From a virus: DNA of 41,339 nucleotides. Each line of letters starts with the position of its first letter. The first letter of the stretch is position 1. The notes below the pieces were generated by a model that was given only the letters and a program-made list of their open reading frames with translations, made no database searches and was not told the origin of the DNA. The position numbers and the translations under genes are program-made. The stretch covers positions 1 to 41,339 of IMG/VR virus record IMGVR_UViG_3300033144_001492; one strand, written 5' to 3'. Shown piece by piece: positions 1 through 41,339 of the stretch.

Positions 1-63
1 ATATACAATGCCTTACAAATAAAGGACACGAAATATTTTACCAATGGGAATTTGAATTGGTAA
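1..63 (+). CDS. possible 3' end of a gene entering the window
   Basis: An open frame enters at base 1 and stops at a TAA, giving 20 residues that end in NGNLNW. The start is outside the window. Frame 3 is also open to base 68 and reads plausibly (ending FELVS), so the frame is uncertain. Base use is more AT-rich than in the structural genes. If the sequence is a circular genome opened here, the partial gene at the far right end would run in frame into this one. Confidence 0.3.
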   Translation: MYNALQIKDTKYFTNGNLNW

Positions 64-244
64 GCTGACTATGTTTTTTATTTTATGTTAGGCATCTTTT
101 TTAATTGCACCTAACGACTGAACAAAAGACCGTTTAAATGGCTTTTGTTTGGGGTTATAAACTAAACAAATAAAGAACTAACAATCAGAACATAAATAGG
201 TTACGTACTAAAAAAAATCAAAGGTTTCACCAATAGATTGCACA
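64..244 (+). other. gene-free leader with two hairpins before the terminase genes
   Basis: No convincing gene is seen. GTTAGG at 87-92 can pair with CCTAAC at 110-115. AACAAAAG at 121-128 followed by CC pairs with GG then CTTTTGTT ending at 149, a 10-bp stem with one bulged A. The second hairpin could end transcription from the left. I see no TAnnTTTG promoter. The position just before the small terminase would suit a packaging site, but nothing in the sequence shows one directly. Confidence 0.4.
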
Positions 245-799
245 ATGAACAAAAATCCAACATACAAAAGAACATCTGGAGAGAAGGAAATTGACAAGGA
301 ATTTGTCCTCGACTTATATCTGAAAGGATTGTCATTCACGCACATCACAGACACTCTGAATGGTTCTCGTGTTTACAATGTGTCAAGAACACAAGTGACG
401 AACGACATCAAGCACGAAATCGCAATCTGGAAGAACGAACGTCTGGACAACATCGAGGAATCAGTGCAGATGGAAATTCAGAAAATCAATCTTCTGGAAA
501 TGGAATACTGGAAATCTTGGATTCAATCACAGAAGACACAGAAGGTCACAACCACATCTGGAAAGAGTCGAGTCAACAGTCAGAAGAAGGTTGTCGGTGA
601 CACAGAGATTGTCAAGACAGAACGTCAAGAGGAAACGTGTGGTGATGTCAGATTCCTTCAAGGAGTCGAGAGGTGCATCCAGAAGAGGTGTGAACTTGCT
701 GGACTGGACAAAGCACAAGAGATTGTCATATCTGGCAAACTGGAACACACCACGTTCGAGTTGTTCACAGAAGGATATCCACTGAAAAAAGTTGACTGA
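245..799 (+). CDS. terminase small subunit-like protein
   Basis: This 184-residue protein probably recognises phage DNA for packaging and hands it to the large terminase. Residues 15-60 (DKEFVLDLYLKGLSFTHI, then SRTQVTND) look like a helix-turn-helix of the kind at the N-terminus of small terminases. The middle is charged and helical, which suits oligomerisation, and the tail is short and polar. The call rests mainly on this layout and on being the first gene of the packaging block, with TerL four small genes downstream. Its stop overlaps the next start as TGATG, so the two are translationally coupled. I see no catalytic motif. Sequence conservation in this family is low, so homology searching would be needed to confirm it. 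Confidence 0.6.
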   Translation: MNKNPTYKRTSGEKEIDKEFVLDLYLKGLSFTHITDTLNGSRVYNVSRTQVTNDIKHEIAIWKNERLDNIEESVQMEIQKINLLEMEYWKSWIQSQKTQKVTTTSGKSRVNSQKKVVGDTEIVKTERQEETCGDVRFLQGVERCIQKRCELAGLDKAQEIVISGKLEHTTFELFTEGYPLKKVD

Positions 800-1859: not shown

Positions 1860-1957
1860 TGTTGTTCATCGCATCATTCTTGTCAATCGTGTTCGGAACT
1901 GTTGGAACAATCATCTGGATTCTTGTGGAACGCAAATGGAACACACCAAAGGAATGA
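1859..1957 (+). CDS. 32-residue single-span membrane peptide
   Basis: Start and stop both sit in overlaps with neighbours (TGATG at the start, ATGA at the end). The product begins MLFIASFLSIVFGTVG and continues hydrophobic through TIIWILV before a charged tail, ERKWNTPKE, so it should span the membrane once with its C-terminus inside. Its place immediately before TerL gives no clear role. It could be a small holin-like or accessory peptide. Confidence 0.5.
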   Translation: MLFIASFLSIVFGTVGTIIWILVERKWNTPKE

Positions 1958-3489
1958 AAGAACTTGTCAACATATCTGCACCACAACGTGCAATCTGTTC
2001 GAGTGCAGAACCTCGCAACTTGTTTCTTGCTGGTGTCGGTTCTGGAAAGACACACACGGAAGGTCTTCTCTCTGGATATTTTATCAAGAAGTTTCCAGAG
2101 ATTCGAGGGTTCATCGGTGCGAACACCTATGCACAACTGACAAAGTCCTCTCTCTCCAGAATCCTTGATGTCTGGTCGGATGTGTTCGGATGGACTGGTG
2201 GTCAAGATTATGTCGTGGACATCAAACCACCAGAACACTTCACAATCATCGGACAGAGGTTGAAGGAGTACAAGAACACAATCTCATTCAAGAACGGTCA
2301 TCTGATATTCTTGTCTTCTCTGGAGAATTACAAAGCGATTGACGGAACTGAGTTTGCTTATGCACTCCTTGACGAAACAAAGGACACCAAAGAAGAAGCA
2401 GTCAAAGAAGTAATCATCGCACGTCTTCGACAAATCGGAATGTTCGTCTGTCACGGAAAGGTCGAGAGAAAGGAATCATTCGACCAGAAGTTGTTTGATG
2501 GAACATACAAAATGAAAGGTGACAAAGTTATGAACACAGAGAATGGTCACGAGGTCAAAGGATTCAATCCACTTTATATCTTCACCTCTCCAGCAAAAGT
2601 TGAATGGTTGAACCAGTGGTTCGGAATTGATGAACGACTCGATGACATCAACACACGCATCTTCTCGAAAGAAGACTTTTATCACTCGAAACACAATGGA
2701 GTGTCTGTCACAATCTCTTCAACATACCACAACGAGAAGAACCTTTCCATCGGATATATTGACAACTTAATCAAGAGTTATGAACACAATCCATCGTTGA
2801 TTGATATGATGATATTCGGTTCACCGATTGCGAAGACTGGTGGTGAATGGTTCTCCAGATTCGACAGAACTGTCCACGTCACAGATGTCGAATTCAATCC
2901 AGACTATCCACTGCACATCACACTCGATTTCAATGTCGTTCCATACATCACACTCCTTGTCTGTCAATTCATTCCAGACGAAGACACTGGACGGATGAAC
3001 TGGAACACTCTCAAAGAATACTGCCTGGAATCACCAATGAACAACACCGAGTCTGTGTGTGGTGAATTCTTCTATGACTATGCTGGAAAGATTCGTGGTT
3101 TATATTACTATGGTGACGCATCTGGAAAGAACCGTTCAACTCTGATTAAAGACATCCGTCACAATTACGATGTGGTTGAGAACGTTCTTCGTTCGGTTCT
3201 GAACAATGATTCAGACAGAGTGTTGAACCACAATCCATCACTGGTCAAGTGTCGTGACTTCTTCAATCGTGGACTCTCTGGTGGATATCCATTCAACATC
3301 AACGTTCATCCATCTTGCACCGAACTGATTGCAGACTTTGACTTCTTGAAAGAAGATGTCAATGGTGGATATAAGAAACCAAAGGTGAAGAACACAATCA
3401 CTGGTGAAACATACGAGAAACGAGGTCACTGCGCAGATGCGTGGAGGTATGTCGGACTCTCTGTCTTCGAAGATTTATTCAATGCGTGA
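1954..3489 (+). CDS. terL: terminase large subunit
   Basis: The packaging motor ATPase and nuclease, 511 residues. Walker A is GVGSGKT at 27-33. Walker B is LLDE at 138-141, with catalytic E141. The RNase H-like nuclease domain shows candidate metal-binding acids D325 (in HITLDFN), D388 (in YYGDASG) and D495 (in GHCADAWRY). Length and order fit the standard two-domain terminase. An in-frame ATG lies 18 bases upstream, but the one chosen overlaps the preceding stop as ATGA, matching the other junctions in this run. The end overlaps the next gene as TGATG. Confidence 0.95.
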   Translation: MKELVNISAPQRAICSSAEPRNLFLAGVGSGKTHTEGLLSGYFIKKFPEIRGFIGANTYAQLTKSSLSRILDVWSDVFGWTGGQDYVVDIKPPEHFTIIGQRLKEYKNTISFKNGHLIFLSSLENYKAIDGTEFAYALLDETKDTKEEAVKEVIIARLRQIGMFVCHGKVERKESFDQKLFDGTYKMKGDKVMNTENGHEVKGFNPLYIFTSPAKVEWLNQWFGIDERLDDINTRIFSKEDFYHSKHNGVSVTISSTYHNEKNLSIGYIDNLIKSYEHNPSLIDMMIFGSPIAKTGGEWFSRFDRTVHVTDVEFNPDYPLHITLDFNVVPYITLLVCQFIPDEDTGRMNWNTLKEYCLESPMNNTESVCGEFFYDYAGKIRGLYYYGDASGKNRSTLIKDIRHNYDVVENVLRSVLNNDSDRVLNHNPSLVKCRDFFNRGLSGGYPFNINVHPSCTELIADFDFLKEDVNGGYKKPKVKNTITGETYEKRGHCADAWRYVGLSVFEDLFNA

Positions 3490-3695
3490 TGATAGTGAAC
3501 AAAGTAATCATTTCAAAATACGGAATCGCGATGAAAGAATCAGAATGGTTGAACGTTCTGGACACATACACTCTTGACGAAATTCAAATCATCTGGTTCG
3601 AGTTGTTCGACCTTACTGCGAGAAAGTATTTCCGTTCATATCTGCAAGACAGAGTGACGAACAGAAAGTTCGGAAGACAAGGTCTGTTGAAATAA
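3489..3695 (+). CDS. small protein between TerL and portal, unknown function
   Basis: A 68-residue protein beginning MIVNKVIISKYGIAMKES. It is coupled to TerL by a TGATG overlap, so the ATG there is preferred over starts upstream inside TerL. The middle is acidic and aromatic (YTLDEIQIIWFELFDLTARK) and the end is basic. It ends the first packaging operon, since a promoter-like site follows before the portal gene. No family is recognised. Confidence 0.6.
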   Translation: MIVNKVIISKYGIAMKESEWLNVLDTYTLDEIQIIWFELFDLTARKYFRSYLQDRVTNRKFGRQGLLK

Positions 3696-3730
3696 GGACA
3701 AAACAAATTTCGTTTTCAAATCTAAATTAA

Positions 3731-3738
3731 TATATTTG
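3731..3738 (+). promoter_or_regulatory. promoter before the portal gene
   Basis: TATATTTG followed by CTAAA is an exact TAnnTTTG match. It lies 20 bases before the portal ATG, leaving a very short leader. No clear -33 TTTG is seen, though TTTCG lies near the expected place. Confidence 0.65.
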
Positions 3739-3758
3739 CTAAATTCAAAACGATTCAA

Positions 3759-5828
3759 ATGACTGACATCACCAAAGGATTCGAGATTCTCGCAAACACG
3801 ATTGCAAAAGGAGAAAACGGAAGACATCAAGACTATGCGAGAACGGTTCTTCTTGCAGACACATACAAGAAACTAATCACTGGAGAGAACATCGCATCAC
3901 TTCTGATTCAATTCACTCCACGAGAATCGAAAGAACAGTTCGCACAACGATTGAGATTGACACAGTCAGTCACTCCACAAATGTCCGAGAAGATAATCAA
4001 TCCTTTTTACAAGGTCAGTCGAATCGACAACATCAACAAACAACTGGTCTGGAAGATGGAAAATCCAGAAAGAACAGAACTCCTTCACAAGACCATCGAA
4101 ACGTTTTATGGTGATGAAACACTTGACGATTTTATGGAAACCAGATTCACACAGTTGTCGTTCACCGATGCAAATGCGTTTCTGGTTGTCGAGTTTGACC
4201 AGTTCAACGCAAAGACACAGAACGCGAAACCATATCCGATGGAAGTGTCATCGAAACAAGCAGTCAATTTCAAATACCAGAACAACGTTCTCCAGTGGTT
4301 GATTGTTAAAAAGGAAATTCAATACAAGGTCATAAATGATTCAAAGGTTTCACACCGTGAAGGACATCAGTTCAGAATCTATTTGCCGAATCAAATCATC
4401 GTTCTGAATCAAATCGACTCCAGAATCAATGGACGCGAGTTCAGAGATATCGACATCACAGAAGTTGAAGAATCAACAAAGGTGCGAATCAACAACCAGA
4501 CATTTGAGATTCAAGTGTTCAGTCCGAACGCTGGTGAAGTTCAAGCAATTCGCATCGGATATAAACGCGACACGGAAACAGAAGGTCGAACGTATGTGAA
4601 TCCATTCCATCCAGCGTTGTCCAGATTTATGAAGTCAATCAAGTCAGTGAGTGAATTCGATATCACAACAACTGCACACGTCTTTCCACAGAAATTGCAG
4701 TATGTTGAAGCGTGTCGAGGAACAGAAGATTCAACGTGTAATCACGGAAACGATATCAACGGAAAGGTCTGCGAATCGTGTGGTGGTTCTGGAATCATCA
4801 TTCACAAGACTGCGAGTGATTCCATCACGTTGCCACTTCCGAAACGTAAAGAAGAAATGCTCGACCTCGACAAACTTCTTGTCTATAAAGCACCACCAGT
4901 TGATTTGATTAAATTTCAAAAGGAATATGGCGATGACCTCGAACAGAAGTCCTTGACCGATGTGTTCGTTTCAGTTTCAATGTCCAGAGTCACTGGTTCA
5001 ATGACTGCAACCGAGAAGACGATTGATATGGAATCAGTCTATGACACACTCCTTCCCTATGCGAATAAGTACTCAACCGTCTGGAAGAAGATGGTTCGAC
5101 TCTCTGCAACATTCACAGACACGAACAAAGGTGGTCTGATAGTTCGACACAACTTTCCAAAGGACTTCAAGATGAAAACGGTGAACGCACTGTTGAATGA
5201 TTTGACAGAGGCGAAGAACAGTGACGCACCAGAGTTCTTGAAGACAGAAATCGCACAAGACATCGCAGTCAAAATCTATGCGAACAGTCCAGAGTCCTTG
5301 AAGAAATACAAGATTAAACAACAACACATTCCGTTCAAAGGAAAATCACCGATGGAAATTCAACTGGTGATGAACTCCGAACTGACTCCAAAGGATGATA
5401 AAATTTTATACGCGAACTTTGAATCAATCATCACTGAACTGGAGAAAGAATTCATCGCAGAACAGAAGAACTTCTTTGACCTTCCATTCGACAAGAGAGA
5501 AGAGGAACTCAACAAGAAGGTGAAAGCATATCGAGAACGAATCAGAACAGAAGAACTTGACGAAACTGCGTCCGTGATGTTCGGTGTTGAAGATGGTGAA
5601 GATGTTGCACCAGAAGAGATTGCGACTCCAGTTGATATTGAAGCAGAGGCAAAAGCAAAACTGAAAGGAACAGTCGGTGGAATCACTGCAATCATCGGAA
5701 TCAACAGTGCAGTTGCACGAGGTGAAATGACTGAAAGTTCTGCGAAAGAACTTCTCGTTCAAATCTTTGGTTTCACACAAGACATCGCAGACATTCTGAT
5801 TGACAAACCAGAATCGTTGAATGGCTGA
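3759..5828 (+). CDS. portal protein with an internal zinc-ribbon-like insert
   Basis: This 689-residue protein lies between TerL and a MuF-like protein, the usual portal position. Its length, and stretches such as MSEKIINPFYKVSRIDNINK and FVSVSMSRVTGSMTATEKTID, fit a portal, the dodecameric ring through which DNA enters the head. An unusual feature is a four-cysteine segment at about 319-341 (C319, C327, C338, C341). Its second half, CESCGGSG, is exactly the CxxCxGxG pattern of DnaJ zinc domains. The C-terminal 100 residues are acidic and helical. The gene end overlaps the next gene by 8 bases. The portal call rests on context and size; the cysteines are read directly. Confidence 0.8.
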   Translation: MTDITKGFEILANTIAKGENGRHQDYARTVLLADTYKKLITGENIASLLIQFTPRESKEQFAQRLRLTQSVTPQMSEKIINPFYKVSRIDNINKQLVWKMENPERTELLHKTIETFYGDETLDDFMETRFTQLSFTDANAFLVVEFDQFNAKTQNAKPYPMEVSSKQAVNFKYQNNVLQWLIVKKEIQYKVINDSKVSHREGHQFRIYLPNQIIVLNQIDSRINGREFRDIDITEVEESTKVRINNQTFEIQVFSPNAGEVQAIRIGYKRDTETEGRTYVNPFHPALSRFMKSIKSVSEFDITTTAHVFPQKLQYVEACRGTEDSTCNHGNDINGKVCESCGGSGIIIHKTASDSITLPLPKRKEEMLDLDKLLVYKAPPVDLIKFQKEYGDDLEQKSLTDVFVSVSMSRVTGSMTATEKTIDMESVYDTLLPYANKYSTVWKKMVRLSATFTDTNKGGLIVRHNFPKDFKMKTVNALLNDLTEAKNSDAPEFLKTEIAQDIAVKIYANSPESLKKYKIKQQHIPFKGKSPMEIQLVMNSELTPKDDKILYANFESIITELEKEFIAEQKNFFDLPFDKREEELNKKVKAYRERIRTEELDETASVMFGVEDGEDVAPEEIATPVDIEAEAKAKLKGTVGGITAIIGINSAVARGEMTESSAKELLVQIFGFTQDIADILIDKPESLNG

Positions 5829-6765
5829 TTTTGACAAGATACAAAAACGGAAAGACAAGTTTCTTGAAGACCGTGAATCCGTTCTAAAAAAGAAGGTGAC
5901 TGGTGCAGAGAAGAAACTTCTCGACTTAATCTTCAAAGACTTTCTGGACAAACTCGAAACATCAGACGGAAAGATTGTGTCATCTGGAAAGAATATCACA
6001 TTGACACAAGCAATCGACAAAATCTTCAAGACCTTTGAATCCAGAATCAATGCGAATCTGGTCAAAGACTATGTGAACGACATCAAGAAAATCGGTTCGT
6101 TGAATGAATCCTATTTCAAAATATTTGAACCGAACGCAAAGAAGTTCAAAGGAATCAAAGATTCTGCACAGAAAGGAATCTTCACACGACTCGGTCTGAA
6201 CTCTGATGGTAAATTGAAGAGAGGTGGATTCCTCGCAGAGTTCTTGACAGACAACAGACAGAAACGTCAACTGAAAACAATGGTGACGGATGCAATCACC
6301 AGTGGTCAAGGATTCAGTCAACTTCGTGAAGCAGTCCAGACATTGACAGTCGGCAACAAGCAAGTTCAAGGACAGTTGCAATCGAACTATCGTCAATTCG
6401 TTTACGATACTTATTCACAAATCGACAGATTCGAGTCTGGTCTTTACGCAGACGCAATCGGAATGGATGCGTTCAAGTATGCTGGTGGAAAGATTCGAAC
6501 CACACGGAAATTCTGTTGTCAGAGGAACGGACAAATCTTCACAGTGCAAGAAGCAGAGAAGTGGCAATCACTTCGATTCGAAGGAAAGACAAAGAACTAC
6601 AATCCGTTGATTGACTTGGGTGGATATAATTGCAGACACTCCACGCAATATCTTTCGAACATAATCACTGCACGAAGACGGAAAGATTTGACGTTGAACA
6701 AGGACGGAAAACTGGTCAAAGTCAAAGGAGAAAGGAAACCGAAACTGAATTCTGGTTGTCGGTAG
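5821..6765 (+). CDS. MuF-like minor head protein (head morphogenesis)
   Basis: A 314-residue protein following the portal. Its C-terminal third carries the MuF/SPP1 gp7 signature: RTTRKFCCQRNGQIF, then EKWQSLRF, then NPLIDLGGYNCRHS, with paired cysteines and the final G-x-N-C-R-H. The N-terminal two thirds are helical and basic. In related phages this protein binds the portal and is packaged inside the head. It overlaps the portal gene end. After it comes a long gene-free stretch, so it probably ends a transcription unit. Confidence 0.85.
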   Translation: MADFDKIQKRKDKFLEDRESVLKKKVTGAEKKLLDLIFKDFLDKLETSDGKIVSSGKNITLTQAIDKIFKTFESRINANLVKDYVNDIKKIGSLNESYFKIFEPNAKKFKGIKDSAQKGIFTRLGLNSDGKLKRGGFLAEFLTDNRQKRQLKTMVTDAITSGQGFSQLREAVQTLTVGNKQVQGQLQSNYRQFVYDTYSQIDRFESGLYADAIGMDAFKYAGGKIRTTRKFCCQRNGQIFTVQEAEKWQSLRFEGKTKNYNPLIDLGGYNCRHSTQYLSNIITARRRKDLTLNKDGKLVKVKGERKPKLNSGCR

Positions 6766-6850
6766 ATTCAGAACAAAAATCTGCGATTCTCGATTCAACA
6801 GAATAATTGTCTGAATCAAGGTCAAAACTCAAACACACTCCAGTTCTCGT

Positions 6851-6970
6851 TTTAATGCGTTCTAATGAACGAACGGTGTTCCATAGCGTAACCACAACAG
6901 ACCACCAGAGTTCGTCAATGTCTTTGTGGTCTTGACATCCAGAGGTGATTTGTTAGGAATTTAACATTCC
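6851..6970 (+). ncRNA. structured noncoding element, copy 1 of a two-copy motif
   Basis: The 6766-7029 interval has no gene. It contains GAACGAACGGTGTT (6867-6880) and TTGAnnnCCAGAGG (6932-6945), both repeated at similar spacing at 28399 and 28467. Local hairpins are CGTTC/GAACG at 6859-6872 with loop TAAT, GACCAC (6900-6905) with GTGGTC (6926-6931), and GGAAT/ATTCC at 6956-6970. Conservation of blocks with variable spacers suggests a conserved RNA or a protein-binding DNA site. Strand and ends are uncertain. Confidence 0.5.
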
Positions 6971-7029
6971 ATTAAAAAAGAATTTCAACATTGAGAAAAT
7001 AAAATTTTGAATTTCGTTTTTTTTTACCT

Positions 7030-37563: not shown

Positions 37564-37628
37564 GAGCAATTAAAATAATATATTATACCATCTTTCCAGA
37601 AAAGTTGAAGCATAAGCACAAGAAATGA
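37560..37628 (+). CDS. 22-residue mini-ORF linking to queD
   Basis: It begins within the stop region of the preceding gene and ends in ATGA with queD. The peptide starts MRAIKIIYYTIFPEK and ends in a lysine/histidine tail. It could be a coupling leader rather than a working protein, but the two-sided overlap is the same as for the larger genes. Confidence 0.35.
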   Translation: MRAIKIIYYTIFPEKLKHKHKK

Positions 37629-38170
37629 GTCAAACCATCACCAGACCATTTGAGTTCGATTCTGCGCATCGTGTGATGAATCAAAAATTCAAGTGTTACA
37701 ACTTGCACGGTCACAGATATCGTGCAGAATTGACGTTCTTCTTCGTTGAGGTTGAGGAAATCGGATATCAAATCGACTTCTCTGAAATAAAACGCATCGG
37801 TGGACAGTGGATTGATGACCACCTCGACCACGCAATCATCTTGAATCCAGAAGATAAATCGATTTTAAAGGTCTGTGACGAACTTTCTTCTCGGTTCTGG
37901 ACAATGAGTCTGAACGGTGAAAGATATTGCAATCCGACTGTCGAGAATGTGTCAAAAGAAGTGTTTCTTGCAATCTCAACATTGTTCGACCACGAATCAA
38001 AACTGATTTTGACGGAAGTGAAGTTGTTCGAAACTCCGAACTGTTGGACAATATGCACCAGAAAGTCCATCACAACAGAAGAAGAAGAAAATTTCTTTGT
38101 GAAGAACTATGTTTCTTTAAAAGATTATCAAAAGAAGAAAGGACAAATTCAATACGATGACAGATTTTGA
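37625..38170 (+). CDS. queD: QueD, 6-carboxy-tetrahydropterin synthase
   Basis: This enzyme converts 7,8-dihydroneopterin triphosphate to 6-carboxy-tetrahydropterin, the first committed step to preQ0. Zinc ligands are H15 (FDSAHR), H28 and H30 (NLHGH). The catalytic cysteine is C24, directly before YNLHGH. DFSEIK, LDHAIIL, PTVEN and ETPN follow as in the family. At 181 residues it is longer than the usual about 120, with an insert after the first third and a charged C-terminal tail. It is joined by ATGA overlaps to its neighbours. Its substrate needs FolE, not seen here. Confidence 0.93.
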   Translation: MSQTITRPFEFDSAHRVMNQKFKCYNLHGHRYRAELTFFFVEVEEIGYQIDFSEIKRIGGQWIDDHLDHAIILNPEDKSILKVCDELSSRFWTMSLNGERYCNPTVENVSKEVFLAISTLFDHESKLILTEVKLFETPNCWTICTRKSITTEEEENFFVKNYVSLKDYQKKKGQIQYDDRF

Positions 38171-38339
38171 ACGCATATTTGCACAAGGTTATGAACAAGG
38201 ACAGAAAGACTTGATTCAGACAATCAAAGACCGAATCAATGGAGTCGTTGACAAATCAGACACGAATCAGATGTCAGATTGTCTGTTGTTGTTGCTACAA
38301 ATAACACCATCAGAACAAAAAAATGAAACAGAGGAATGA
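38157..38339 (+). CDS. 60-residue protein between queD and queE
   Basis: A helical, acidic protein: MTDFERIFAQGYEQGQKDLI, then KDRINGVVDKSDTNQMSDCL, then a leucine-rich turn and NETEE. It overlaps queD by 14 bases and queE by 17. The full overlap on both sides and its conserved-style sequence argue that it is a component of the pathway, for example a small partner of QueD or QueE. It might equally be an unrelated passenger. No known homologue is recognised. Confidence 0.55.
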   Translation: MTDFERIFAQGYEQGQKDLIQTIKDRINGVVDKSDTNQMSDCLLLLLQITPSEQKNETEE

Positions 38340-39057
38340 CATATCAGTCGCAGAATGGTTCTATTCTGTGCAAGGTGAAGGAATCACCAGTGGAACACCA
38401 TCAATCTTCTTGCGTCTTGCTGGATGCAATCTGTTGTGTGGTCGAAATGACGCAACGTGGACGTGTGACTCAATCGAGGTCTGGAAGAATGGTCAAACAT
38501 TCAACGTCTTTGAACTGATTCGGAAGATGAACAACGACATCGCACTGTTCAATCGTCTGAAACACGCAAATCTGGTCATCACTGGTGGAGAACCACTTCA
38601 ACAACAACAATCTCTGTGTGTCTTTCTGCACGAAATCCGAGAACTGACAAGCGAGAGAGGTCACAATGTGGTCGTTGAGGTCGAAACAAACGGAACAATC
38701 ACACCATCAATGGAACTGAACTCTCTTGTCAACATCTGGAATGTGTCACCGAAACTGTCAAACTCTGGAGAACCTATCAAAAAACGATTCAATCTGGACG
38801 CAGTTCGCATCTTTAACGCATCGAACAAAGCACAATGGAAGTTCGTTGTCACCAGACACGATGACTTGAAGGAAATCATCGCAGAATGGTGTCCAGTGAT
38901 TGAAGATGAAACAATGATTCAACTGATGTCTGGTGCAGATAATCGGAAAGACCTTGACAAAATGAATCAATGGTTGATTAAAAAGTGTTTGATTTATGGA
39001 TTCAGATTCACAAATCGACTCCAGATTCAAGTGTGGAACGAAAAAACTGGAATATGA
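38323..39057 (+). CDS. queE: QueE, radical SAM 7-carboxy-7-deazaguanine synthase
   Basis: It makes 7-carboxy-7-deazaguanine from carboxy-tetrahydropterin with S-adenosylmethionine. EWFYSVQGEGITSGTPSIFL is the family opening. The 4Fe-4S cysteines are C35, C39 and C48 (GCNLLCG, then ATWTCDS); this wider spacing of the third cysteine is seen in phage and some bacterial QueE. NLVITGGEPL and VVVEVETNGT are the SAM and substrate loops. 244 residues is normal. Its stop overlaps queC as ATGA. Confidence 0.93.
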   Translation: MKQRNDISVAEWFYSVQGEGITSGTPSIFLRLAGCNLLCGRNDATWTCDSIEVWKNGQTFNVFELIRKMNNDIALFNRLKHANLVITGGEPLQQQQSLCVFLHEIRELTSERGHNVVVEVETNGTITPSMELNSLVNIWNVSPKLSNSGEPIKKRFNLDAVRIFNASNKAQWKFVVTRHDDLKEIIAEWCPVIEDETMIQLMSGADNRKDLDKMNQWLIKKCLIYGFRFTNRLQIQVWNEKTGI

Positions 39058-39722
39058 ATGGTTCAAAAGCAGTTGTCATCTTCTCTGGTGGACAAGACTC
39101 CACCACTTGTCTTGCGTGGTCACTTGAAAGATATTACATTGTCGAGTGCATCACGTTCGAATATGGACAGAAACACGCAATCGAAATCAATCAATCGAAG
39201 AAAATCTGTGCGAAATGGAACGTCAAACAGACGATTGTTGACCTTAAATTCCTCGACACTCTGGTTGATTCTGCACTCACATCGAACGGTGATGTGGACG
39301 AAATCACTGACAAAGGTCTTCCAGCGTCATTCGTTCCGAATAGGAATCAACTATTCATCACACTTGCACACGCATACGCACAGAAAATCGGTGCAGAAAC
39401 CATCGTCACTGGAGTATGTTCGCAAGACGCAAACGGATATCCAGACACCACAACAGAGTTCATCAACCACATTGAACGCACATCAAATCTCGGTTCTGAT
39501 GGTTGTGTGAAGATTGAAACACCACTTATCAACAAACTAAAGTTCGAAACTTTCCTTCTTGCAGACGAACTGGACTGTCTGGAAGATGTTCTGGAGTTGT
39601 CACACACTTGTTATAATGGAAACAGAACAGACCGTCATCCATACGGATATGGATGTGACGAATGTGGTGCGTGTAAACTTCGCAGAGAGGGGTTCAATTC
39701 GTTCCTAAACATTCAACAATGA
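39054..39722 (+). CDS. queC: QueC, preQ0 synthase
   Basis: An ATP-dependent enzyme that turns carboxy-deazaguanine into preQ0. The PP-loop SGGQDSTT is at 11-18. DLKFLDTLVDSALT and GLPASFVPNRNQLFITLAHA are the middle signatures. The zinc site is C186, C201, C204 and C207 (HTCYNG, then GCDECGACK). Length is 222 residues, normal. Upstream in-frame starts lie inside queE, so the ATG overlapping the queE stop is used. No QueF is seen, so preQ0 should be the end point. Confidence 0.93.
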   Translation: MNGSKAVVIFSGGQDSTTCLAWSLERYYIVECITFEYGQKHAIEINQSKKICAKWNVKQTIVDLKFLDTLVDSALTSNGDVDEITDKGLPASFVPNRNQLFITLAHAYAQKIGAETIVTGVCSQDANGYPDTTTEFINHIERTSNLGSDGCVKIETPLINKLKFETFLLADELDCLEDVLELSHTCYNGNRTDRHPYGYGCDECGACKLRREGFNSFLNIQQ

Positions 39723-40525
39723 AGATTTTCTTTGCTGGTTCTGACCTCACAAAATACGACAGACGAAAGACTCTGAATGACTCTGGTGTGAATCGGTTTC
39801 TATATTCTTTCCACTCCTTGAAACGGTTCTCGAAGGATGTGATGGAACACTGCAAGGTCGGAAAGGAACTCGGAGAAGAAATCTTTCTCGATTCTGGTGC
39901 GTTCTCTGGAATGACACAAGGAGTTCACATCGATATTCGTGACTATTGTGACACCATACATAAGAATCTGGACAATCTGTCTGTCTATGCGTCACTCGAT
40001 GTCATTGGTGACTATCACGGAACACAAAAGAACTTTGAATTTATGCAATCAGAAGGACTCGAACCACTGATGACATTCCACATCGGTTCTCCATTCTCTA
40101 TTCTGGAAGAAATGGTCACACAAACTGACTATCTTGCAATCGGTGGTCTGGTCGGCAAACCGAAACTGATGGTCAAAAGGTTTCTGGAGAAGTGTTTCTC
40201 AATCATCAGAACAGATGCAAAGGTTCACGGATTCGGATTCACCTCTGTTCACGGTCTGAAAGCATATCCATTCTATTCGGTGGACTCGACAACGTGGTTC
40301 GGTGGTTCAATGAGAGCAGAAATCCACAAATATCACGATGGAAAAATCACATACATCAAAACAAAACGGAAAGACCACGCATCTGGAGAGTCAATGTGTT
40401 TCACAGATACTGGAGAAAACAAACTCTGGTTCGAAAGAAACGTTCAGAACGCAGTTGAGTGGATGAAATATGAACAATATCTGGATGAACTCTGGACAAA
40501 ACGAGGAATAAAATGGACAAAATGA
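39719..40525 (+). CDS. dpdA: DpdA-like DNA transglycosylase (TGT superfamily)
   Basis: A 268-residue TIM-barrel protein that probably swaps guanine in DNA for preQ0. LDSGAFSG (57-64) is the counterpart of the TGT catalytic motif DSGGFQ, with D58. ASLDVIGDY (91-99), IGGLVGKPK (141-149), VHGFGFTS (169-176) and SVDSTTW (187-193) follow as in phage DpdA. D189 may be the nucleophile. It is shorter than tRNA TGT and lacks the zinc-binding tail of that enzyme, as expected for DNA-acting forms. ATGA overlaps with queC and the next gene. Confidence 0.85.
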   Translation: MKIFFAGSDLTKYDRRKTLNDSGVNRFLYSFHSLKRFSKDVMEHCKVGKELGEEIFLDSGAFSGMTQGVHIDIRDYCDTIHKNLDNLSVYASLDVIGDYHGTQKNFEFMQSEGLEPLMTFHIGSPFSILEEMVTQTDYLAIGGLVGKPKLMVKRFLEKCFSIIRTDAKVHGFGFTSVHGLKAYPFYSVDSTTWFGGSMRAEIHKYHDGKITYIKTKRKDHASGESMCFTDTGENKLWFERNVQNAVEWMKYEQYLDELWTKRGIKWTK

Positions 40526-41187
40526 AAGTGAACAAAAGCAAATTCAAGATGATTCCACTGAAACAACTGTGGAAAGCACAATGGAACTACAAAGAAGACA
40601 ATCAAGAACAACTGAATCGTCTGGTGGAAAATATGAAACGCAACAATCAAGTGGAGAACATTCAAGTCAGAGAGGTTGAATCAGAAGATGGAAAGACATT
40701 CTTCGAGGTTATCAACGGAAACCACCGACTCGATGCGATGACCACCATCGGATTTCCGAGTGCGATGTGCTACAATCACGGACAGATTTCAGATGCACAA
40801 GCACAAAGAATCGCAATCGAAACAAATGAAACACGATTCCAGAACGATGGAACAAAGATGTCTGAACTGATTGCGTCATTCTCGAAGGATTTCTCGATGG
40901 AAGAACTCGCACAGACTCTTCCATTCACAGAAGAAGAAATCAACGGACACATCAATCTGTTGAACTACTCGTTTGATGATATCAACACAGACGGTGAAGA
41001 AGGTGAATTCAATCCGAACGCACCAGACAATCTGAAAACAATCAGAGTGACCGTTCCAGAAGAAACATTCAACCTCTGGACTCAATGGAAAGAGAGAATG
41101 AACGATGAACTCGGATATGACTCCGAAACAAAAGCAATCGAATTTGCGTTAATTGAAGCGATGAACACACCGACAATGTCAAAATAA
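40522..41187 (+). CDS. ParB/Srx-domain protein
   Basis: 221 residues. The N-terminus reads MIPLKQLWKAQWNYKEDNQE, then LVENMKRNNQ, VENIQVREVE, FFEVINGNHRLDAM, the beta strands plus the GNHR turn of ParB/sulfiredoxin domains. The later part is helical (ISDAQAQRIAIETNETRFQN, then SMEELAQTLPFTEEEINGHI), like the HTH half of ParB. The ATG nine bases downstream of the first one is used since it overlaps the dpdA stop as ATGA. ParB-type proteins bind or cut DNA with CTP or as nucleases. Here, next to dpdA, it may guide or partner DNA modification. Confidence 0.75.
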   Translation: MKVNKSKFKMIPLKQLWKAQWNYKEDNQEQLNRLVENMKRNNQVENIQVREVESEDGKTFFEVINGNHRLDAMTTIGFPSAMCYNHGQISDAQAQRIAIETNETRFQNDGTKMSELIASFSKDFSMEELAQTLPFTEEEINGHINLLNYSFDDINTDGEEGEFNPNAPDNLKTIRVTVPEETFNLWTQWKERMNDELGYDSETKAIEFALIEAMNTPTMSK

Positions 41188-41213
41188 TAATGTAATAAAT
41201 AAAACATAAAGCA

Positions 41214-41339
41214 ATGGAAATAGGTTCAATCTATAAAACAAACAAAGAAATAAAAGAACGTAAAGCCGAGTTAAAAAGGCGTAATAAAAAAAGACTTAGC
41301 CCAAAAGAAGTTAAAAAAAGGTTAATTGATTTTTTAAAA
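41214..41339 (+). CDS. small basic protein, runs off the window end
   Basis: At least 42 residues, starting MEIGSIYKTNKEIKERKAEL and very rich in K and R (RRNKKRL, VKKRLIDFLK). Codons TTA, GTT, AGC and GCC are unlike the modification genes, and the DNA is strongly AT-rich. The leader is A-rich with no ribosome box. It could be a small DNA-binding protein or regulator. The frame stays open to the last base. Confidence 0.5.
   Translation, partial: MEIGSIYKTNKEIKERKAELKRRNKKRLSPKEVKKRLIDFLK

What the first reader, a model, noticed from the sequence alone, without database searches (positions are those of the whole stretch)
37625..41187. A self-contained preQ0 synthesis and DNA insertion cassette
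Established: QueD, QueE and QueC make preQ0, and phage DpdA puts deazaguanines into DNA, blocking restriction. Seen: all four genes, with diagnostic residues, are chained by short overlaps with a 60-residue gene and a ParB-domain gene. No QueF-like or amidotransferase gene is present, so dPreQ0 is predicted. FolE must come from the host.
Basis: partly seen in the sequence, partly recalled or inferred. Interest (0 to 1): 0.75.

Follow-up and report, generated by a model that had tools for sequence, protein, structure and literature searches.

The report
Phage preQ0 DNA-modification cassette without FolE
A bacterial virus carries a compact gene set that makes the modified base preQ0 and swaps it for guanine in its own DNA, probably to dodge bacterial DNA-cutting defences; the gene set is of a known kind, but it lacks the first pathway enzyme that every comparable set examined has, and its DNA-inserting enzyme belongs to a branch that almost always sits beside a ParB-like gene.

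Summary
Window 37625-41187 holds queD, a 60-codon ORF, queE, queC, dpdA and a ParB-domain gene, chained by overlaps of 4 to 17 bases. DpdA is not an unrelated TIM barrel: its predicted structure matches tRNA-guanine transglycosylases best. The kind is known: deazaguanine-modifying phages, with Rosebush (ParB-DpdA type, dPreQ0 measured) as close analogue.

(1) FolE is missing: 49 of 49 related cassettes with queD, queE, queC and dpdA carry folE in or against the cassette. A relative's contig bridges the two window ends, so the genome is nearly complete and the absence is probably real. (2) No QueF or amidotransferase gene was found, which supports dPreQ0, although the two named phages that share the dpdA-ParB overlap do carry QueF. 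(3) ParB is not a bystander: among 89 phage DpdA sequences, the 39-member 9g-type clade has no ParB and 36 of 39 have a sliding-clamp gene just downstream, while 47 of the other 50 have a ParB neighbour. I suggest that DpdA works with a DNA-embracing clamp, replicative or ParB-type; that part is inference. A new variant of a known kind.

The parts
37625..38170 (+). queD: 6-carboxytetrahydropterin synthase (181 aa)
   Evidence: PF01242 3.4e-29; phrog_2389 1e-27; C24/HGH, DHLDH, PTVEN motifs; below the NCBIfam QueD equivalog cut-off, 66 vs 89 bits
38157..38339 (+). 60-aa ORF overlapping queD and queE; no known family, no relative in related cassettes
   Evidence: gene status unproven
38323..39057 (+). 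queE: 7-carboxy-7-deazaguanine synthase, radical SAM, phage-type C-x3-C-x8-C (244 aa)
   Evidence: phrog_2076 2.6e-43; 41% identity over full length to phiSM QueE
39054..39722 (+). queC: 7-cyano-7-deazaguanine synthase, no glutamine-amidotransferase fusion (222 aa; start at ATG 39054)
   Evidence: PF06508 7.6e-68 and TIGR00364 above cut-off
39719..40525 (+). dpdA: DNA-guanine transglycosylase, ParB-associated branch (268 aa)
   Evidence: phrog_887 6e-46; D58, H170, D189 invariant with 9g DpdA; AlphaFold2 pLDDT 87, best PDB matches all TGT
40513..41187 (+). ParB/sulfiredoxin-fold protein with NGNHR motif (224 aa), conserved neighbour of dpdA
   Evidence: phrog_723 1.6e-18; fold matches ParB, Noc, KorB, sulfiredoxin; Pfam ParB_N 0.014, below cut-off
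41214..41339 (+). start of an ORF cut by the contig end (42+ aa), no family
245..799 (+). 184-aa gene (phrog_645) that follows the cassette on the inferred circular map, before HNH and large terminase
   Evidence: relative contig L012 carries the ParB end, a 98-aa ORF, then the homologue of this gene
1936..3489 (+). terminase large subunit, downstream of the cassette on the inferred circular map
   Evidence: phrog_2 9.5e-19; L012 synteny

Best explanation
This is a phage DNA-modification operon. QueD, QueE and QueC turn the product of GTP cyclohydrolase I (FolE), taken from the host's folate pathway because the phage has no folE, into preQ0. DpdA, a tRNA-guanine-transglycosylase-fold enzyme, then exchanges guanine for preQ0 in phage DNA. 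With no QueF, Gat-QueC or ArcS-type enzyme found, the expected nucleoside is dPreQ0, which would shield the DNA from many restriction enzymes. The overlapping ParB-fold gene most likely encodes a DNA-binding partner of DpdA, playing the part that DpdB plays in bacterial Dpd systems. Shown: genes, motifs, fold, synteny, absence of folE and queF from the record. Inferred: host FolE supply, dPreQ0 as end product, the ParB role, and protection from restriction.
For: Family matches. DpdA residues aligned with 9g DpdA and TGT as best fold match. Rosebush, whose genus mate TA17A has ParB-dpdA-queC-queD-queE-folE, was measured to contain dPreQ0 at 96,530 per million nucleotides (PMC6884629). 9g FolE, QueD and QueE complement E. 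coli mutants, and CAjan dpdA is needed for modification (PMC6884629). FolE, QueF and GATase absent from the record. folE in 49 of 49 related full cassettes, 41 inside and 8 abutting, with queE-folE-queC order in the closest ones. Bridging contig L012 without folE at the junction. ParB neighbour label on the DpdA tree: 4 changes versus 29.8 expected on shuffling, 0 of 500 as low. FolE found in all six cellular genomes tried and 11 of 14 controls.
Against: The record is linear and the join of its own ends is not observed, only the relative's. phiSM and Mufasa8, which share the dpdA-ParB overlap, carry a QueF homologue, so another end product made with a host or unrecognised enzyme is possible. 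QueD scores below the QueD equivalog cut-off. A bacterial DpdB-like protein (L185) and the phage ParB proteins could not be linked by profile comparison (probability 4.9%). Nothing shows that the genes are expressed or the DNA modified.
Confidence: 0.75

Rival explanations
1. Same cassette, but folE and/or queF lie in a short unsequenced gap or elsewhere in the phage, giving a fully self-supplied pathway and perhaps dPreQ1 or dG+ instead of dPreQ0.
For: The contig is classed linear; the two named phages that share the dpdA-ParB overlap carry folE and QueF close by.
Against: L012 has only about 315 bp between ParB and the next conserved gene; in the 49 full cassettes folE always lies in or against the cassette.
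Confidence: 0.15
2. The final base is a further modified preQ0 (dADG, dCDG, a methylated form) made by a host enzyme or by an unrecognised phage gene.
For: Phages with dADG are known (PMC6884629), and further derivatives are reported in Cui et al. 2023, cited in PMC12783734; many window genes have no assigned function.
Against: No known modifying enzyme found; the gene set equals that of Rosebush apart from FolE, and Rosebush carries dPreQ0.
Confidence: 0.2
3. The genes boost preQ0/queuosine for host tRNA rather than modify phage DNA.
For: QueD, QueE and QueC also serve tRNA queuosine; some phages encode them without dpdA (PMC6884629).
Against: dpdA is in the operon, and 9g DpdA failed to restore tRNA Q in a tgt mutant while it put preQ0 into plasmid DNA (PMC6884629).
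Confidence: 0.04
4. The ParB gene is an ordinary partition or nuclease gene kept next to dpdA by shared ancestry only.
For: Fold match is to canonical ParB and Noc; ParB genes are common in phages; label changes on the tree are few, so the number of independent associations is small.
Against: The neighbour is kept while operon order, side (upstream or downstream of dpdA), folE position and terminase family all change, and a paired arrangement dpdA-ParB-dpdA-ParB occurs (L107, L108).
Confidence: 0.3

Closest known systems
Mycobacterium phage Rosebush / TA17A cassette (Rosebushvirus)
   Same: ParB-fold gene, dpdA, queC, queD, queE next to terminase, no amidotransferase; Rosebush DNA carries dPreQ0 (PMC6884629; TA17A)
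   Different: has folE; ParB upstream of dpdA; different gene order; proteins only about 30% identical
Cellulophaga phages phiSM, phi38:2, phi47:1
   Same: dpdA and ParB overlap by 13 nt as here; QueE and QueC are among the nearest in named phages
   Different: folE and a QueF gene nearby; order dpdA-ParB-queC-queD-queE; sliding clamp downstream
Enterobacteria phage 9g and kin (Queuovirinae)
   Same: DpdA with the same D, H, D residues; same pathway
   Different: DpdA is longer, no ParB, sliding clamp directly downstream, folE present; 9g has Gat-QueC (PMC6884629)
IMG/VR cassettes L087, L103, L112 and kin
   Same: queD-queE-...-queC-dpdA-ParB order, DpdA 35-41% identical over the alignment, terminase downstream in most
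   Different: folE between queE and queC
Bacterial Dpd system (DpdA/DpdB/DpdC)
   Same: TGT-fold DpdA working with a ParB-superfamily DpdB (PMC12839542)
   Different: no DpdC seen; DpdB-like neighbour in L185 carries DGQQR and is not matched by the phage ParB profile

Membership tests
Phage DpdA (9g-type) DNA-guanine transglycosylase | matches DpdA/TGT family and TGT fold | tested here: met
   phrog_887 6e-46; all fifty listed PDB fold matches are TGT, best E 1.2e-07
Phage DpdA (9g-type) DNA-guanine transglycosylase | conserved Asp pair and the His that DpdA2 lacks | tested here: met
   D58, H170, D189 invariant in alignments; His distinction after PMC6884629; that its position 196 corresponds to H170 is inferred
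Phage DpdA (9g-type) DNA-guanine transglycosylase | exchanges guanine for preQ0 in DNA | not testable with these tools
   needs biochemistry or LC-MS
NCBIfam bacterial DpdA equivalog (NF041059) | score above curated cut-off 200 bits | tested here: not met
   21.8 bits; not a member of the bacterial DpdA family in the narrow sense
Phages of the dPreQ0 group (FolE, QueD, QueE, QueC, DpdA, no amidotransferase) | QueD, QueE, QueC, DpdA present; no QueF, ArcS, Gat-QueC | tested here: met
   ArcS not searched by its own model, none seen among the ORFs scanned with PHROGs
Phages of the dPreQ0 group (FolE, QueD, QueE, QueC, DpdA, no amidotransferase) | FolE present | tested here: not met
   no PF01227 match in the 41339-bp record
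QueD equivalog TIGR03367 | score above cut-off | tested here: not met
   66.1 vs 89.25 bits; motifs C24-x3-HGH and PTVEN are present, so QueD remains the best functional reading
Bacterial DpdB (ParB superfamily) | profile similarity to DpdB | tested here: inconclusive
   hhalign probability 4.9% against one DpdB-like protein, alignment over the DGxxR motif; no PADLOC hit
ParB/Srx fold | fold match to ParB or sulfiredoxin | tested here: met
   6sdk, 7nfu, 3hy2 among matches, E 1e-7 to 5e-5; model pTM 0.57

The most novel reading that the evidence does not exclude
Phage DpdA enzymes act with a DNA-embracing clamp, and two solutions exist: one branch (9g type) is tied to the replicative sliding clamp and modifies DNA at the fork; the other (this window) is tied to a ParB-type clamp and acts on DNA near packaging, its genes lying just before the terminase genes.
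Probability: 0.25. Interest if true: 0.7.

Novelty: new variant of a known kind. Interest (0 to 1): 0.45.

Why it matters
The cassette is a compact version, apparently dependent on host FolE, of a known anti-restriction DNA modification. More useful is the general pattern it exposes: nearly every phage dpdA examined sits next to a gene for a protein expected to enclose DNA, either the replicative sliding clamp or a ParB-fold protein. 9g DpdA alone put preQ0 at only about 0.3% of guanines in plasmids, while Rosebush reaches roughly 28% of its guanines (from numbers in PMC6884629). A missing clamp partner is one simple explanation, though expression level or preQ0 supply could be others. It makes the question of how a tRNA-type enzyme gains access to duplex DNA directly testable by adding one gene.

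Tried and rejected
Unrelated TIM barrel: rejected by fold search. Truncated contig hiding folE just past ParB: made unlikely by L012. Single-protein pattern scans for close relatives of the cassette gave nothing; an alignment query did. 50 relatives of the window's terminase hold no QueC or DpdA, so the cassette looks like an accessory of this phage branch, though many of those contigs are fragments and the DpdA search had no positive control in that set. The exact right-end sequence was found in no other viral contig. Sequence search of the PDB with DpdA and ParB gave nothing useful. Codon usage does not mark the cassette as foreign (correlation 0.96 with late genes). The weak second 'FolE' hits in L090-L097 are phosphoribosyltransferases, not QueF. 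My early guess that L010 extends the window to the left was wrong: it carries an insertion instead. The ParB alignment was too divergent for a viral scan.

Full report
Observation. Family models give QueD (PF01242 3.4e-29), QueE (phrog_2076 2.6e-43), QueC (PF06508 7.6e-68), DpdA (phrog_887 6e-46) and ParB (phrog_723 1.6e-18). The hallmark residues are in place. QueC is the plain enzyme without a glutamine amidotransferase domain. QueE has the spaced cysteine pattern C-x3-C-x8-C, close to that of phiSM (C-x3-C-x6-C). The 60-aa ORF matches nothing.

DpdA. The window protein aligns with DpdA of 9g and other phages, the Rosebush-type TA17A and Cellulophaga phiSM, with D58, H170 and D189 invariant. 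Hutinet et al. (PMC6884629) note that DpdA2 lacks a conserved histidine; H170 here suggests the 9g-type superfamily rather than DpdA2. AlphaFold2 gives pLDDT 87 and pTM 0.87, and all fifty listed PDB matches are tRNA-guanine transglycosylases. The protein scores far below the bacterial DpdA equivalog cut-off.

FolE. No GTP cyclohydrolase I lies in the 41339-bp record, which is a linear IMG/VR contig. Searching IMG/VR with a DpdA alignment gave 80 loci. Forty-nine of them hold queD, queE, queC and dpdA, and all forty-nine also hold folE, 41 inside the cassette and 8 abutting it. The cassettes most like this one read queD-queE-folE-queC-dpdA-ParB; in the window queE runs directly into queC with an ATGA overlap. 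A terminase relative, L012, matches window 40882-41185 (end of ParB) at its left end and window 1937-7011 further on, so the genome is inferred to be circular or circularly permuted, with the cassette just before the packaging genes. Between ParB and the next shared gene L012 has about 315 bp encoding a 98-aa protein, no folE. The window's own join is not sequenced, so a small doubt stays. FolE is present in all six cellular genomes tried and in 11 of 14 controls, so a host supply is plausible.

End product. QueF and GATase_7 are absent. The gene set then equals that of Rosebush minus FolE; Rosebush DNA contains dPreQ0 (PMC6884629). Against this, phiSM and Mufasa8, which share a dpdA-ParB overlap, each carry a small gene annotated GTP cyclohydrolase that Pfam identifies as QueF. 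dPreQ0 is the likely but not certain product.

ParB and clamps. On a tree of 89 phage DpdA domains the presence of a ParB neighbour needs 4 changes against 29.8 in shuffles. The 9g-type clade of 39 has no ParB in the flanks examined. Of these, 36 have a sliding-clamp gene just downstream of dpdA; two of the other three end at the contig edge. Of the other 50, 47 have ParB; L096 ends 125 bp after dpdA, L128 has a truncated ParB hit of 9e-07 upstream, and L111 is a real exception. Large terminase genes of several unrelated families follow ParB-type cassettes. Independently annotated phages agree: clamp in Sphingomonas MMDA13, Microcystis Me-ZS1, Shewanella S0112, Pseudomonas Iggy, Edwardsiella ZHS, Streptococcus Dp-1, Vibrio VpKK5 and a Stenotrophomonas phage; ParB in Typha, Sour and Megan. 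phiSM has both. That DpdB, a ParB-superfamily protein, usually accompanies DpdA and that a mycobacteriophage ORF1 may be its homologue has been said before (PMC6392294). The clamp-or-ParB split was not found in the papers searched, a library that lacks Cui et al. 2023 and most subscription journals. That ParB proteins are CTP-dependent DNA clamps is established knowledge for chromosomal ParB; that this one is, is inference from its fold. Limits: the 80 loci are those nearest to the window, several are near-copies, and the number of independent events is small.

Verdict. A real phage preQ0 DNA-modification operon of known kind, unusual in lacking folE, with a ParB gene that deserves to be treated as part of the machine.

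Noticed in passing
L010 1-400 versus window 1-130: A second contig of what looks like the same phage (99.99% identical over 9.5 kb) carries about 270 extra bases after window position 114-116, in an AT-rich intergenic stretch; both assemblies start at almost the same base.
   Followed up: partly
L012 1-2200; window 40882-41339 and 1-1936: A relative's contig joins the two ends of the window, pointing to a circular or circularly permuted genome with the cassette directly upstream of the packaging genes.
   Followed up: yes
L105, L107, L108, L120, L129, L149, L153, L156, L162: Tandem dpdA genes, in L107/L108 as dpdA-ParB-dpdA-ParB, and tandem ParB genes in L121; may mean hetero-oligomers or two target specificities.
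   Followed up: no
L090 1769-2212, L092 3738-4184, L097 1603-2046: A phosphoribosyltransferase gene (PF00156 in L090 and L092) sits between queC and folE in several of these cassettes; possible role in salvaging the displaced guanine.
   Followed up: partly
L092 2088-2918, L094 7649-8545, L121 4809-5672: A UDP-glucose/GDP-mannose dehydrogenase-like gene (identified in L092) lies after queE in several cassettes; function in this setting unknown.
   Followed up: no
L001 2012-2413, L003 6710-7117: Genes annotated GTP cyclohydrolase in Cellulophaga phiSM and Arthrobacter Mufasa8 are QueF homologues by Pfam.
   Followed up: yes
window 245-799; L203 4283-4711: The PHROG named RNase E (phrog_645) occupies the slot just before HNH/large terminase here, and a gene annotated RNase E directly precedes the terminase in Typha; the position is that of a small terminase, so the name may be a misannotation.
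   Followed up: no
window 5821-26239: Much of the structural module has no PHROG match, so this phage branch is poorly represented in reference collections; among named phages its terminase matches mostly Flavobacterium phages, which hints at a Bacteroidota host.
   Followed up: partly
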